The notes under the pieces: generated by a model
The model's database searches: none
Told to the model about the DNA's origin: nothing
What the model saw: the letters and a program-made list of their open reading frames with translations, nothing else
Source of the DNA: Periconia sp. R9002
Taxonomy: Eukaryota > Ascomycota > Dothideomycetes > Pleosporales > Periconiaceae
Assembly: GCA_023627715.1 (NCBI GenBank)
Contig: JAMAHW010000005.1
Location: forward strand, 620,001-684,000
Reading direction: 5' to 3'
DNA length: 64,000 bases
Made by a program: the position numbers and the translations under genes
In this document: positions 29,940 through 45,710 of the stretch, one piece after another
Numbering within the stretch: position 1 is the first letter of the stretch
Layout of the letters: every line of letters starts with the position of its first letter

Positions 29940-32900
29940 ATGGATTCTCAGGGCGGCTTCAAGGACTTCAACGCCATGGATTTCAACGCCGGCTTCACCA
30001 CTATGCCGCAACAGGGGTTTAACCCTCACAAGACTTCCGCCGGAGAGGATAACACTTCTCCTGCCTTCTTCTTCGCTGATGAGGGCATCGATACCACCAC
30101 GGGCGATCTGGGTCAGGAAACTTTCGACTTGTTACTGGCCGGTCTGGATAACCCGGATCTCACAATGCAGCAGCAATCACTCGTAAGTCCATTCCTCCTT
30201 ATATGTCTAGATCGTGATGACAAATTGAAAAATCTTGAGTGTCCATTCTGACAGGTCAAATAGGGTTTGGGTAACACCTCCGGGAGCTCTTCATGGATAG
30301 ATCCCTCCATACACATCAACAATACATTCACTCCTACCCCAGCACAGTCCTTCAACATGTACACCCCGCAAATGACTACGAATTCATTGGGTAAACGTCC
30401 ATTGCAACTTGATGTTCAGGATTTCCCCCAGCCCAAAAGGCATGAAGGGCTCTCAGGTACCGACCTGGATTTTTCCCCTTATCCTATGTCTACGACGGCA
30501 TCAAGCTGGACCGTCGAGACGCAGCCCACATCATTGTCTACCTCTACCGATTCGATAGGACTCAGCGATGAGGCTGCTGATGTATGTGCGACATGGTTCA
30601 GCAAGTACAACGTCCTGCCAAGTGACAGGCACATTGACTCGCTTGCACAACTCACCGGCGAATCTGCCACCGCTATACGACAATGGTTTGGCCAGGCATT
30701 GAAGCAGGGTCTTGGCCACGACTCTGCGTACAGGTCCCAAACCAGTGGCTTCATACAAGCACCCTTCTCCTATCACACGTCGCACACTACACCGGATTCG
30801 TTAGACCAGACGACCTACTCAGACCTCCTTACCCTTACCGAGGGACAGAGTACCTCTACCGCGCAAACTACTGCCACTACCGCACAGGCTCCGCTTCGAG
30901 GTGGTCGCAAAGGATGCAATCCTACAAACGACCCCGAATTATTGAAACGGGACCCTAAAAAAATCTACCAATGCACCCGAAAGTGCGGCAAGCGGTATGG
31001 AAGGAAATGCGACTGGAAAAGGAATGAGGAAGAGGGTTATCCCTCCAAGTCCTGGATCTGCTCACTATGCGTTGAACAGGGTGTGGAGCGTGTGAAACCC
31101 TGCTTCAGGAAATACCACTTCTCTCAGCACTTCCGCAATGTGCACCCGGGAATCGATTGCAACAACTTTGAGGAAGCTAGTGTGGTCCACTCGGACACTG
31201 CCTTCCCTAAGAAGTGTGGCTTCTGCACTCATCACTTCGTGTCAAGGCAGGATCGTATCGACCATATTGCAGAGCACTTCAAAGAGGGGAAGAGCATGCT
31301 CGAATGGAACGATAACGACAACAACGACTCCGATAACACCGATGATGATGATGACAGCAACGATGACCGGCCAGATAGCGGTGGCTCTGGTGGTAACCAT
31401 CCTTTCTTCTCGCCTGGCAAAGATGATCAATCCGGCGGGTCTGGCTCCAAGGATGGCGGTAGTGGTGGTGGTGGTGGTGGCGGCGGTGGAAATAGCAGCG
31501 GCTCTGGTTACCAAAAACTGACTGAGGGTGGCTTCTTCCAGTTCCAGCTTTCACAAGCCAATGTTGCCAATGCTGGAGGGGAGAAGTTGGATGATGGCGC
31601 CTTGCTTCGCCCCGACAAGCCGTGCGTTCCTAGTGCCCAACAAGACGACACAGAAGCAAGCTCCACTGGAAAACAGCGTATTTCGACGTCGCCAGAATCG
31701 TCGGAAGACAGAATTATCAATAGCGATTCCAACGAAGAGCTCATCGTTTGGGAAGATAGGCAACTCGCAGAACGATTTGATAGAAAAGCAGAGCCGATCG
31801 GTGGTGCAAAGGATGTGGACCCGACGACTGTGGCCCGAGATGCTTTCTCCCAGTCCCTCATGAAAATCTCCAACTTGGAAGGCATTGATATGGAATTGAT
31901 CAGCAGATCGAAGATTGATGGGTCGAACAATTCGACGACTCGCGCATTGAACGCACTGCTTACGCTACTCAACCCTATACCCAGGGCAGCGCCAGCGCTT
32001 CCACCACCTCTTCAACCATCTGACAGTCTAGGAGACTCGTCGTCATCATGGCTGGCGTCCGAGCGTTCATTCCTAGAAGGATTTATTTCGTCTCAAAGTG
32101 CCCTAACAAAGCCTTCGAGTGCTAGTCTACAGGTAGCATCGCCTTCTCTTTCCTTCTCGTCAAGGCAGAAATTGACAAATGAACAGCAATACTGGAAGGG
32201 CATTACAACACTGCTCGACCAGCAATCGTTCGTCAGCATCAAGCTCCTCGGTACGGGTGGATTTAGTACAGTCGACGAAGTACTGCATCGCGAAACAAGC
32301 CTCCGCATCAGCCGAAAGACCCTCAAGAATCGCCGTCAATCAGCGCTCGAGGAACTCAAGAAGGAGGTCAATGTTCTCCAGAAACTCCGCCACCCGCACG
32401 TCATCCGCTTCCTCGGAGCATACTCAAAGGATGACAAGATGTCAATCCTGCTCTCACCTGTTGCTGAAACAACGCTCGCTGTATGGCTCGACCAAAAGAG
32501 TCTGGAGCAGCCAGCTGGCCTGACTCAGACCATTGTCAAGATGCTAGGATGCTTGTCGTCTACGCTACGCTACCTTCACGAACAACGCCCTGTTGTGAAG
32601 CACATGGACATCAAGCCCCAGAACATCCTAGTAATGCAAGGCAATCAAGATTTCCCACACGTTGTTCTGAGCGACTTTGGTATCAGCTCGGTCGAAGACA
32701 CGAATCTGGACGACAAGCACAAACCACTTACACGCCAGTATTGCGCTCCCGAAATCATGGGAGGCGTTCGTGCCGAACAAGCTTCTGATATCTGGAGTTT
32801 AGGATGTGTGTTTGCGGAGATGGCAACGTTTGCTTTTAGCAAAGACAGTCCACACTGGAATGACTTCCGTGCCAAATATCACGGTCGCAAGACCAACTAC

Positions 32901-34367
32901 TATTGGCAAGATATTCCTGCGCTTCAGACTATGCTGACACAATTCCTCGAGGGATCGTCTAGCTCAACCGAAGCCACCGTGGTGCAAACCGTCAAATCGA
33001 TGCTGAATGCTGATCCAGCTGAGCGGCCAGACGCTGCCATGTTGGCAATGATCTTTACACCCGCACCCTGCTGTCTGAGCTGGCCTAATGAACAAGCCTC
33101 CTACCCCGGACCCGACCAAGAGATGGAGAGTGCGCACATGTATGCCCATGAATTTGGCCATGACCATCCCGCGAATGTCAAAGCCTCCCCTCAAGAAGGC
33201 TCATCAGACAGATTCTCGCAAGTCTCCGCTTGGCTCGATGAATGCTCATCTGAACACGAGGCTTGCCACCACCACGAACAGTCAGGTAGTACCAGAGTTC
33301 TGCCTACACGTCTCATCGACCTTCGTCCAGACGGAGTCGAAGGTGCGAACGTTCGAGTCCTAGACAGCGCGCTACTGGAGAACAACGCAACTCCGTACGC
33401 CGTGTTGAGCTACACCTGGGACCGTAGCGACATCACCTTGACAACTGATCGTGCCAACGCCGACCAGATTAACATACCTCGTGACCTACTCTCTGACAAT
33501 CTAGAGAACGGCATCAAGGCCATGCAACGCATCGGCTTCCGCTACATTTGGGTCGACTCACTCTGTGTCCTGCAGGACTCAGCAGAAGACAAGGAACGCG
33601 AGTGCATTGCAATTGCGAATGTCTATCGCAACGCCGATATCACCGTGTTACTAGATCATCTGGAAGATACCCAGCATACTAAACCGCCAAACTTTATAAG
33701 AGACGGTTGTAGTAGGAGTAGTACACCAAGCACAAATCACGGCGCAAAGAGCGACTCAACAGAACAGGACCTATCATTCTTCCTTCGAAAATCATTGCTT
33801 CGAAAAGACCCTGTAACCGCTTCCGTCAGCCCGCTCACTTTTGACTGGGCCCAATGGGACACTCCCGGCTTTTCATGGGATACACGCGCCTGGTCACTCC
33901 AAGAACGCCTCCTCTCACGACGCATCCTGCACCTCGGTGCGCCACAAGTCTACTGGGAGTGCAACGGTCTCAAAGCCAGCGAGACGTTCCCGCGTGGTAT
34001 GCCGCCTCTCCTTTGGGAAAAGGTACATACGAAGGATGTCGCTGCCGCCGCCGACAAGCAAAGCCGCCGCCTGTTGAACGTTCGTTTCGAACAGGACGAC
34101 GGCCCCGACGCGGCCGCCGCAGCTCACAACACTGCATCCTTCATCGCGGAAACATGCACTGCCGCTGTTGCTACGGCGCTTGAAAAGACAAACGAGATGA
34201 ACACTTGTGAAGGGTGCACGCCTCAGAAGTTGAAGACGTGTCAGTGGATCAAGAGGGAAGGGGATGGGATTGGAGATTCGATGGAGGCCGCGCAGATGTC
34301 GCTCTCGCTGCACGCTACCGTTACCACCACGCAGTCCGCTCCCTCCGCACATGCGGAAACGGACTAG
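29940..34367 (+). CDS. homeodomain-like / C2H2 / protein kinase / HET-domain fusion protein
   Basis: Exons 29940-30182 and 30264-34367 give 1448 residues. Four regions follow each other in one frame. (1) Residues about 182-232 form a helical homeodomain-like segment (DEAADVCATWFSKYNVLPSD then ATAIRQWFGQALKQG). (2) Residues about 317-422 carry Cys/His pairs of C2H2 type (YQCTRKCGKRYGRKCDW, FRKYHFSQHFRNVHP, KKCGFCTHHFVSRQDRIDH). After a Gly/Asp-rich linker comes (3) a Ser/Thr kinase at about 725-1015: Gly loop LLGTGGFSTV, Lys766 in ISRKTL, HMDIKPQNIL with Asp863, DFG at 885, APE at 909. (4) A HET domain lies at about 1125-1340 (PYAVLSYTWDRSD, RYIWVDSLCVLQD, NVYRNADIT, WDTRAWSLQERLLSRRILHL), preceded by a HET-protein lead-in (WLDECSSEHEAC, LPTRLIDLR). 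HET domains trigger incompatibility cell death. A promoter or substrate is unknown. Confidence 0.85.
31460..31494 (+). repeat. GGT/GGC triplet repeat encoding a poly-Gly linker
   Basis: Run of glycine codons within the Gly/Asp-rich linker that separates the zinc-finger region from the kinase domain of the fusion protein. It lies just downstream of an Asp/Asn-rich triplet run (GAT/AAC) at about 31307-31370. Such in-frame triplets may vary in length between strains. Confidence 0.8.
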
Positions 34368-42588: not shown

Positions 42589-44954
42589 TCAATCAATAGT
42601 GATGTGTTGGCGAGGAAGTTCCAAACCCTGGATTTCCCCGTGCATGACTCCGTACACAAACGCTTCTCCAATGAGTTGATAGTTCCCATTGGTTCGTTTT
42701 CGGAGCACTGTATATGGATACAAAGTCAGTTAAGCTCAGCCAGAATGTAGACAAAATGCAATACACGTAGAATGTACGTACCAAGCGGAACATCACTACT
42801 ATGTAATATCCAAACCTCGTCTCCAACACGCAGAGAGCGCGGACCTGTTCCTAGGTACCCTCCTCGGGTCTTGAACAGACGGCGGTTTTTCCCTCCGCTC
42901 TGGTCGAATTCGTGCTGGAGTTGAGCTAAGCCAATGGGTGAGTACGTTCCATTAAACATGTCTTCTACGACGGCCGATAATCGCCGCCTGTAAATATCAA
43001 TACTGTATGGAGAATCGGGACCTTCGAGTTCCAGTAATGTACGCCACTCGGGATAGATGGACTCTGAAAGCGGTGAGTGATGAGGTTGAAAAGCATCGGC
43101 GCTTGACCATGGCTGTAGACGATGTCGGATTTGTAAGTTCAGGATGTAATCAATGAATAGGGATCCTGTTTGATTCGGTGCTGGGTATATCTTATTGTAA
43201 ATGTCTGTAGTCAAAGTTCTCCATAGCACTTCGACACGCCCTGATGGATTGTTCTTTTTGTTTAGGTTCGGGTACGGTGGATTGAGGGAGAGGGCGAGTT
43301 GGACAATACTAGCCCAAGAGGCGCTTGGATCCGAGGATTCGTTCTGCATCACTGCCGCCTGCTCAATTACATCTAGTTGGTAGCCTTGCACTTCCAGCTC
43401 GCCATTTGCCATGCTGTAAACATTGGGCTTCCAGGCCATACTTCCCGAGGCATTCCAATAGGTTAGTCCGCGGTATCGAAGAGGATAAGGGTCAAGCTTG
43501 ACGCTGTAGTCTGGAACCCACGAGGGAAGGTTTGGAAGACTTGTTTTAGAAGGATCTTGGACATGACAAAGCAGCGTGAGATTCTGATACGATGACAAAA
43601 GCACGCGTGATGTCTCCGTGTATACCTCTTGAACGCTAAGATGGTAATTGGGTGTCAACGCAGTCGGATCGTCGCGGAACGGTGCCATGTTTCGGTCTGC
43701 CAGTCCTAGAAAAGCATATATTTTGTCGCGTGGATCGGTTGATTGAGAAAACCGAAGCGTTTCCAAAAGCTGACGTAGCGGAGGCTGTCGGTTCCTCTCA
43801 AAGGGAGAAATTTGAGATCTTCCCGCCAGTTTTAGGCGTGTAGAATCGAGATACAATGGTCCGACGCCAGCATGTAACTTTGATTGCAGAACACGCTTGT
43901 AGATTCCTGGATTCTGCCGAAGCGTCTTAATATGCCGTAGCTTCTCGGTGTCGAGATGGCGATACCATTTGGATATCCTGAGGAAGGATAATGTCCTAGA
44001 CAACTTGTCCCAAGGAAGTATTCTGTTGCCACATACAACAATGGCTTGTTTTGCAAGTGCAATTTCTTGAACGACCTGTTTGTATAAGCCTCGAATACCG
44101 GAACGATTGAAAGACTTACCCATGCACGCTTGAACCAGGGACGGTTGATCAATGCAATGAATCCAAGCCAGTTGTGATAAGATACATCAGGATGATTGTA
44201 TCCGACTGCTTGCGATGGATCATAGAACGAGGTGTATGGTACCATTGACCAAAACTGTTGGGGAAGAGCGAATATCTTGTCGATAGTGGTGAGAGCGTCC
44301 ATTGTATAGTCCTGGTGGAAGGCGAGACTTAGTATCATAGCATCACTTCGCTTGAGATCTTATTGCTCTAAACGTTTTTGGGGATGCGACGAGGATATGA
44401 CTTACATCTTCTTTTCCTAGCCATACAATGACACTTGATGCCCTCTCGAATATTTCTGCCATTTTCGCTACTTGTGTGTTCCGCTCTGAAAGATCTTCTT
44501 GATTCATGCATAATGAGTCGATCCAATAGTACGATGGAGAAGATTCTACAGATTGGGAGGGGAACACTCTTGGAAGCATGCGAAGAGCATCTTTCAAATT
44601 ATTAGTGACTTTGATGATTTTATCATCACAAATGATGGAGTGCCTCCGTTTTACTTTGGAGCTGGTAAGGTCGCTCGATGGGCCTCGAATGGTTGATGCT
44701 GGTTCTGTCGCATTGGCCGATTTCAACCGCAACGAGGGCTGACCCCACGTGTAACTGAGGGCCTGAAATGGCGGCGCATCGCGAAGCTCGAATGTGGTTA
44801 GTGAGCAGCAGATGACTCTCTTATCGGAGGACGGTTCAAGCTGCAGAAGTCGGATGCATGTGGGTGACGGCAAAGGAGCGTATTTGTAGTGGCCCAGGAG
44901 GAGCTGCAGGTTCGGCGTAACGGCTGCATGATTGAAAACAGACCGGAGCCGCAT
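42589..44954 (-). CDS. HET-domain (heterokaryon incompatibility) protein
   Basis: Exons 44954-44406, 44311-44120, 44075-42782 and 42707-42589 join in frame to 717 residues. The N-terminal HET domain shows PPFQALSYTWGQPS, then YYWIDSLCMNQEDLSERNTQ, MAEIFERASSVIVWLGKED and, across intron 2, NRPWFKRAWVVQEIALAKQA. The middle holds a common HET-family element (DPRDKIYAFLGLADRN, then LPSWVPDYS), and the last short exon the usual C-terminal strand pattern (NGNYQLIGEAFVYGVMHGE). HET proteins cause growth arrest or cell death on encountering non-self partners. No NACHT, WD40 or ankyrin part is attached. The last exon (39 codons including stop) is easily missed: without it the frame runs on into intron sequence. 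Intact, no frameshift. Confidence 0.9.
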
Positions 44955-45710
44955 CAGTACGAGAGCGCCACTCCTATGGTCGGAGTAGGAAGATCATTTT
45001 CTCGGTTGTGGTTGATGTTACACAGGTGGGAGGAGTGCAGTGATGGATGCTCTAGACGGTGAGCTGTGGGGCTGACCACTCCCGCGATTGATCCTGCAAC
45101 ATCAAGAGAGATCGACATGGTTTCCTCTGCTGAGCATGTTCCACTACTACACGTTAAGAGCATTACTACTTCGTAATTCTATTTCGTGATTTCGGATGCC
45201 GTCTATGAATCATGGGGTTACTATCAAGGAGGACTTTCACTACTGCAAGGGGGATGGATTTAGGGAAGAGTCGGCTCCAGTGCTTGGCTCGGGTAGATAT
45301 GCGAAAGCGTGCTAACTCAACATTTGTTGAATGGCTCAGAGTAACTTTTGCATGATGTTGACATCACTTATCATGAGAAATTCAGCCAATTGAGAATTTG
45401 GGGACCGTTCTTCAAGCCAGGCCAAGTGTATGTGCTGTGTTCGGTGGAGGTTTATACGCGTGTTATACGCTTTATTGGGCATTAGCTCGGCGGGACATGG
45501 CCCGGATGATAGCATGTTTTCACGCGTCAAACGATGACTAAGATTTGAACCATGGGGTCAAACTCTAGACTGCGAACCATATACCTTTCACAATGCGCCA
45601 GGGCTGCCTCGATCACGGGCGCTGGGCTTATGTCGTAATGTGCGCCTCTCATGTATACATATGAGCCACGACCCCTCGAATAAAATGCTTTTGACCATGT
45701 GCCACTGACT
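44955..45710. promoter_or_regulatory. divergent upstream region of the HET gene and the 249-aa gene
   Basis: 756 bp between two divergent starts. A tRNA-like pair of strings on the minus strand near 45540-45600 (TGGCGCATTGTG and GGTTCAAATC) was examined, but the stems do not pair. No gene seen. Confidence 0.5.

What the first reader, a model, noticed from the sequence alone, without database searches (positions are those of the whole stretch)
29940..34367. One gene fuses a homeodomain-like segment, C2H2 fingers, a protein kinase and a HET death domain
Seen directly: exon 2 (30264-34367) is one open frame of 1367 codons carrying all four regions, so the fusion is in the DNA and not an annotation artefact. 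HET domains usually sit at the N-terminus of incompatibility proteins or NLR-like receptors. Here a HET module follows an apparently complete Ser/Thr kinase and a transcription-factor-like front. Inference: a signalling protein that senses through its DNA- or ligand-binding front, phosphorylates itself or a partner, and fires the HET domain to cause cell death, a possible fungal immune or incompatibility receptor.
Basis: partly seen in the sequence, partly recalled or inferred. Interest (0 to 1): 0.88.

Follow-up and report, generated by a model that had tools for sequence, protein, structure and literature searches.

The report
Conserved sensor-kinase-HET fusion in fungi
One fungal gene joins a homeodomain-like stretch, zinc fingers, a protein kinase and a HET domain in a single reading frame, and that order is kept in dozens of related species; it likely works as an all-in-one switch whose front would sense a signal and whose HET end would then trigger cell death.

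Summary
The fusion is real. Exon 2 (30264-34367) is one open frame with Pfam matches to a protein kinase (2.6e-42) and a HET domain (6.5e-20). It is not a one-off: in the 120 listed homologues (of 185) kinase and HET segments were found in all 120, the zinc-finger block in 119 and the homeodomain-like block in 102, always in that order. The named ones are Dothideomycetes, mostly Pleosporales; a second search added two Mytilinidiales. One copy was found in the window's own genome. The kinase keeps its catalytic residues, but none of 125 relatives has the Arg of HRD (here HMD: a non-RD kinase). The homeodomain-like helix lacks the usual DNA-contact residues. The kinase-HET spacer is nearly constant (median 69 aa) while the zinc finger-kinase linker varies fivefold. 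Kinase and HET trees agree on the early branches. Best reading: a conserved input-kinase-HET cell-death switch rather than a polymorphic incompatibility gene.

The parts
29940..30182 (+). Exon 1, 81 codons, N-terminus
   Evidence: Aligns to N-termini of P0002 and P0003
30183..30263 (+). Intron, 81 bases, GTAAGT...TAG
   Evidence: Junction aligns without a break to P0002 and P0003; the nearer CAG acceptor (30252-30254) leads to an in-frame TAG; no transcript seen
30264..34367 (+). Exon 2, 1367 codons plus stop
30393..30440 (+). Conserved KR-12 residues-KR, possible bipartite nuclear signal (inference)
   Evidence: 97-100 of the 98-100 relatives with a residue at these columns; 22-24 of 122 are gapped
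30552..30713 (+). Homeodomain-like segment (exon-2 residues 97-150) without Asn51/Arg53 equivalents
30972..31277 (+). Zinc-finger block: finger 1 degenerate (Cys237, Cys241, Asn in place of His); finger 2 at 31059-31145; finger 3 at 31215-31277
   Evidence: Ligand columns; block found in 119 of 120 listed homologues
31308..32219 (+). Low-complexity, fast-evolving linker
   Evidence: Median pairwise identity 26%; 154-785 aa between the zinc-finger and kinase matches, n=122
32235..33041 (+). Protein kinase domain (Pfam Pkinase), catalytic residues present
32601..32609 (+). HxD motif = HMD (non-RD)
   Evidence: 0 of 125 relatives with a residue here have Arg
33042..33395 (+). Stretch between the Pfam kinase and HET matches, with an invariant Cys-Cys pair (33069-33074)
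   Evidence: Distance between kinase and HET BLAST matches median 69 aa, 52-168, n=123; Cys-Cys 122 of 122
33396..34049 (+). HET domain: Pfam match 33396-33905, conserved extension to about 34049
33600..33602 (+). Glu1113, conserved HET glutamate, candidate for the TIR-like functional Glu (inference)
   Evidence: 121 of 126 rows; 8 of the 9 other HET proteins in which the motif was found, of 10 tried
34050..34364 (+). Poorly conserved C-terminal tail
   Evidence: Median pairwise identity 20%; no Pfam match

Best explanation
The gene's reading frame joins a homeodomain-like segment and zinc fingers to a non-RD protein kinase and a HET domain, and its product likely works as a conserved all-in-one switch in which the front would sense a signal, the kinase would relay it, and the HET domain would then start regulated cell death. 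Shown by sequence: the order, the kinase's catalytic residues, the HMD motif, the conserved HET core with its Glu, the near-constant kinase-HET spacing, one copy found in its own genome, and shared inheritance of kinase and HET within the family. Inferred: that the front binds something (a protein or nucleic acid; classical homeodomain DNA reading is unlikely), that kinase and HET form one regulated module, that the HET part acts like a TIR-type enzyme or signal, and that the output is cell death, more likely in response to an outside agent or stress than to a genetically different partner strain.
For: Domain matches. Kinase then HET in 120 of 120 listed homologues. Of the 120 listed (of 123) hits to the front alone, 119 carry a Pfam kinase, 118 of these also a Pfam HET; one, P0124, has neither. 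Catalytic residues in 125-126 of 126 rows; Arg of HRD in 0 of 125. HET columns W1052 123, D1098 124, C1101 124, E1113 121 of 126. Kinase-HET distance 52-168 aa, median 69, n=123, against 154-785 for the front linker, n=122. Chosen family members form one clade in the kinase tree (100/99) and in the HET tree (99/99), with the same early branches. Literature: a HET domain of about 220-240 aa is stated to suffice for death when overexpressed (PMC12881547, passages); non-RD kinases are stated to be associated with innate immune signalling across kingdoms (PMC8463890, start of abstract in a listing).
Against: No expression, structure or death assay. HxD without Arg is common in related fungal kinases without HET, and 7 of 9 own-genome kinase loci found by similarity also lack HRD, one of them by a stop at that codon, so non-RD is a trait of the wider group and no sign of an immune role by itself. 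HET evolves faster than the kinase (median pairwise identity 51% against 66%). Conservation with one copy also fits a housekeeping or developmental role. HET-TIR homology is remote and how HET kills is unknown (PMC10890737, passages). P0178, the nearest kinase-HET protein outside the family, has Gln at the Glu1113 position.
Confidence: 0.42

Rival explanations
1. A conserved developmental or gene-regulatory kinase: the front places the protein in the nucleus or on a partner, the kinase is the output, and the HET part has been turned into a protein-contact or regulatory module without killing.
For: Front blocks and kinase are the most conserved parts (median pairwise identity 76-78% and 66%, HET core 51%); one copy found; KR...KR pairs conserved.
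Against: HET motif residues are kept in 121-124 of 126 rows, more than a mere scaffold would need; I know of no HET domain with such a role (recall; not searched for specifically).
Confidence: 0.3
2. Heterokaryon incompatibility receptor: allelic variants of the protein tell self from non-self at hyphal fusion.
For: HET domains occur in several het genes (PMC10890737, passages); 2 of 5 same-named species pairs differ in the HET core (89% and 71%) more than in the kinase (98% and 89%).
Against: 3 of 5 pairs are 99-100% identical in HET, though these may be the same or close isolates; the order is conserved across many genera; [quoted passage not shown]
Confidence: 0.1
3. Kinase with a defunct or drifting HET passenger left from an old fusion.
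For: HET is the fastest of the four blocks. A C-terminal SWSWA-type motif is absent in 127 of 127 aligned proteins, but it is also absent in 5 of 10 other HET proteins checked, so this weighs little.
Against: Core residues kept in 121-124 of 126 rows; kinase-HET distance kept.
Confidence: 0.1
4. Two genes merged by the reading, not one protein.
For: No transcript was available.
Against: No stop or frame change between the parts; the same order in 120 of 120 listed homologues, which come from many separate assemblies.
Confidence: 0.03

Closest known systems
HET-domain incompatibility proteins (HET-E/D/R NLRs, het-B BH)
   Same: HET domain (PF06985) with core residues kept
   Different: HET lies behind a kinase, whereas it is N-terminal in HET-E/D/R and BH (PMC10890737, passages); no NACHT or WD40 match; one copy found and order conserved across many genera
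Fungal kinase/pseudokinase proteins carrying HELL domains, likened to MLKL
   Same: Kinase domain in the same chain as a cell-death domain (PMC12881547, passage)
   Different: HET (TIR-related) in place of a membrane-targeting domain; transcription-factor-like front
Plant non-RD immune receptor kinases (EFR; FLS2 and XA21 by recall)
   Same: Kinase without the Arg of HRD
   Different: No receptor ectodomain match in the Pfam scans (transmembrane segments were not sought); the trait is widespread in related fungal kinases
Other kinase-HET proteins found here: P0178, P0181, P0182, P0186 (Endocarpon pusillum)
   Same: Kinase followed by HET; P0182 also has a stretch matching the zinc-finger block (38 bits)
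   Different: 29-33% identical over parts of the query. P0181/P0182 fall apart from the family in both trees; P0186 was in the HET tree only, apart, and P0178 in the kinase tree only, next to the family. Separate fusions are suggested, but one clade of the family with P0178, P0181 and P0182 is not rejected (p-AU 0.066)

Membership tests
HET domain (PF06985) | Profile match over the curated cut-off, full length | tested here: met
   72.4 bits, cut-off 22.5, profile 1-146/146
HET domain (PF06985) | Induces cell death when expressed | not testable with these tools
   Needs an assay
HET domain (PF06985) | TIR-like fold | not tested
   Structure prediction switched off; no PDB sequence match up to E 10
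Eukaryotic protein kinase, active by motif | Gly loop, beta3 Lys, alphaC Glu, HxD Asp, Asn, DFG, APE | tested here: met
   All present; 125-126 of 126 rows at these columns
RD kinases | Arg before the catalytic Asp | tested here: not met
   Met here; Arg in 0 of 125
Homeodomain | Profile match over cut-off | tested here: not met
   Homeobox_KN 14.5 bits against 24; best PDB profile match TGIF1, E 0.044
Homeodomain | Asn51 and Arg53 equivalents (numbering recalled) | tested here: not met
   Asn in 1 of 105, Arg53 equivalent in 0 of 106 relatives with a residue there
C2H2 zinc finger | Two Cys and two His in order | tested here: met
   Fingers 2 and 3 by ligand columns; finger 1 not met (His in 1 of 114)
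C2H2 zinc finger | Profile match | tested here: not met
   No Pfam match to the block up to E 10; only chance-level PDB matches
Heterokaryon incompatibility (het) gene | Incompatible alleles, balancing selection | tested here: inconclusive
   3 of 5 same-named pairs near identical, 2 of 5 diverged
NLR/STAND | Nucleotide-binding domain and repeats | tested here: not met
   No such Pfam match; short P-loop-like stretches in the linkers of a few relatives only

The most novel reading that the evidence does not exclude
A new class of fungal immune receptor: a conserved, probably nuclear sensor in which a decoy-like homeodomain and zinc fingers detect foreign nucleic acid or a targeted host factor, a non-RD kinase acts as the trigger, and a TIR-like HET domain executes or signals cell death, all in one chain and independent of NLRs.
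Probability: 0.15. Interest if true: 0.88.

Novelty: new variant of a known kind. Interest (0 to 1): 0.62.

Why it matters
HET is among the commonest and most variable domains of filamentous fungi, and its role beyond incompatibility is called a significant gap (PMC10890737, passages). A HET domain kept in one chain with a kinase and a definable input gives a tractable case: whether phosphorylation controls HET, what the input is, and whether HET kills outside allorecognition can all be asked of a single gene found in many genera of Pleosporales.

Tried and rejected
The HET part has no PDB sequence match up to E 10; the zinc-finger block gave only chance-level PDB matches. The idea that the linker hides a lost NACHT domain was tried: P0014 has an NPHP3_N match there (E 1.4e-13), and a Walker-A pattern gave 8 hits in 7 of 127 proteins, of which those in P0080 and P0109 look like real P-loops and the rest look like chance. 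The P0014 and P0109 pieces match no other of the 244 proteins held, and the P0080 piece matches three others, so no common ancestral domain is supported. Non-RD as proof of an immune kinase was rejected: of 70 other proteins (P0175 on, a few family fragments and HET-only proteins among them) the pattern shows HMD in 27, HKD in 18, HRD in 2, other letters in 13, none found in 10. One single origin of all kinase-HET fusions is neither shown nor excluded (p-AU 0.066). Not done: dN/dS (no DNA of related Periconia was at hand), population data, expression. The 65 hits, 3 and 453 below the listings were not seen.

Papers: PMC10197012, PMC4986451, PMC10890737, PMC12881547, PMC9815663 and PMC5910433 were seen as passages; PMC8463890 as the start of its abstract in a listing. 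Paoletti and Clave 2007 is not held. No paper on this fusion stood out in the listings of searches (one search listed 8 of 416); the library holds open-licence papers only, and the listed papers other than those above were not opened.

Full report
What is there. Exon 2 of the gene, 30264-34367, is open for 1367 codons; with exon 1 (29940-30182) and an 81-base intron it gives 1448 residues, and the N-terminus and junction align with Periconia macrospinosa and P. digitata. P. macrospinosa is the nearest listed relative, 81% identical over 99%, so the window is likely from a Periconia or near kin.

Domains. Pfam finds a protein kinase at exon-2 residues 658-926 and a HET domain at 1045-1214. The front is weaker. 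A homeodomain-like stretch at about 97-150 scores below Pfam's cut-off. Its profile has 11 PDB matches up to E 10: 5 are named homeobox proteins (TGIF1, ZHX3, ZHX1), 2 are alpha-fetoprotein enhancer binding protein (homeobox by recall), 4 are unrelated; the best has E 0.044. The best matches stop at the Trp-Phe of helix 3. Beyond it, the position of the Asn that contacts DNA in homeodomains (recalled) holds Arg in 50 and Gln in 47 of 105, Asn in 1; the position of the second contact, Arg53, holds no Arg in 106. The zinc-finger block has two fingers with near-invariant ligands and one whose first His is Asn in 100 of 114.

The family. A full-length search gave 185 hits among 7986 scored candidates, 120 listed. 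Of these 120, kinase and HET segments were found in 120, the zinc-finger block in 119, the homeodomain-like block in 102, in the same order throughout. Several of the 18 without the homeodomain-like block begin close to or inside the zinc-finger block, so truncated gene calls are likely. For one, P0105, annotated as partial, only a piece of HET was matched and Pfam lists none. Of the 120 rows, 66 bear an organism name, 61 different ones by my count of the listing. Seven of the 61 were looked up: 5 are Pleosporales and 2 (Zopfia, Lizonia) Dothideomycetes of uncertain order; the others I take for Pleosporales from recall. A search with the front alone gave 123 hits, 120 listed. It added two Mytilinidiales with the full set (P0122, P0123) and one protein, P0124 from Eremomyces bilateralis (Eremomycetales), with the front, a second and clear homeodomain, and neither kinase nor HET. 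In the own genome one full match was found; the other 35 listed matches are to a kinase part or a HET part alone, in a genome with at least 152 HET matches.

Function marks. In 126 aligned relatives (P0124 included, which has no kinase) the kinase's Gly loop, Lys685, Glu701, Asp782, Asn787 and DFG are kept in 125-126; the residue before the catalytic Asp is Met in 103, Leu in 17, another in 5, never Arg. The HET core keeps W1052 (123), D1098 (124), C1101 (124) and Glu1113 (121) of 126; other motif columns vary more, such as Tyr1050 (His in 72, Tyr in 48) and Glu1214 (Glu in 94, Asp in 25). A functionally relevant Glu shared by HET and TIR is reported (PMC9815663, passage); that it is Glu1113 is my inference. 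Thr823 ahead of the APE motif and a Cys-Cys pair just behind the kinase are invariant in 122 of 122.

Evolution. Median pairwise identities in P0001-P0123 are homeodomain-like 76, zinc fingers 78, kinase 66, HET core 51, linker 26, tail 20%. The kinase-HET distance is 52-168 aa with median 69 (n=123), the zinc finger-kinase distance 154-785 (n=122), which suggests that kinase and HET work as one mechanical unit. In the kinase tree (89 rows) 23 chosen family members plus the kinase-only protein P0176 form one clade (100/99), with P0178, another kinase-HET protein, next to it (99/94). In the HET tree (42 rows) 22 of those 23 plus P0175 and P0177 form one clade (99/99); P0086 and P0178 fell out by the length filter, and P0186 was left out of the kinase tree by the same filter. 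P0115, the Mytilinidiales pair, P0106 and P0110 branch early in both trees; the finer order differs in places and is partly weakly supported. P0181/P0182 stand apart in both trees and P0186 in the HET tree, so kinase-HET fusions probably arose more than once, although a clade of the family with P0178, P0181 and P0182 is not rejected.

Interpretation. Conservation of one architecture across many genera, with one copy in the genome examined, is unlike the usual HET picture, in which such genes are poorly conserved between distant species (PMC10197012, passages) and vary most in copy number (PMC10890737, passages). I therefore read it as a conserved switch, with HET as output and the kinase as its controller, rather than an allorecognition gene. 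This is inference; the main rival is a developmental or regulatory kinase whose HET part no longer kills. Against the immune reading: HxD without Arg is general in related kinases, the HET block is the fastest of the four, and strong conservation also fits housekeeping.

Noticed in passing
window 42726-44993, minus strand: A second HET gene (Pfam HET in 44343-44993, profile 1-97 of 146, E 1.2e-22), apparently spread over overlapping frames, about 8 kb downstream; introns or decay not resolved.
   Followed up: partly
P0014 591-639, P0080 about 660, P0109 about 970: Short P-loop/STAND-like stretches inside the zinc finger-kinase linker of a few relatives (P0014: NPHP3_N, E 1.4e-13); the P0014 and P0109 pieces are not shared with the other proteins held.
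   Followed up: partly
P0124 (Eremomyces bilateralis): Same front without kinase and HET, but with a second, clear homeodomain (PF00046, E 2.9e-10).
   Followed up: partly
window 33069-33074: Invariant Cys-Cys pair just behind the kinase, 122 of 122 relatives, meaning unknown.
   Followed up: no
P0188, P0197: Related kinases fused to arrays of C2H2 fingers, without HET.
   Followed up: no
window 6014-60851: Ten neighbouring frames scanned match Ysc84, Nup85-type nucleoporin, CCHC zinc knuckle, UDPGP, enolase-like, Fungal_trans, HET, hybrid histidine kinase, EMP70 and TrkH families: an ordinary gene-rich stretch.
   Followed up: partly
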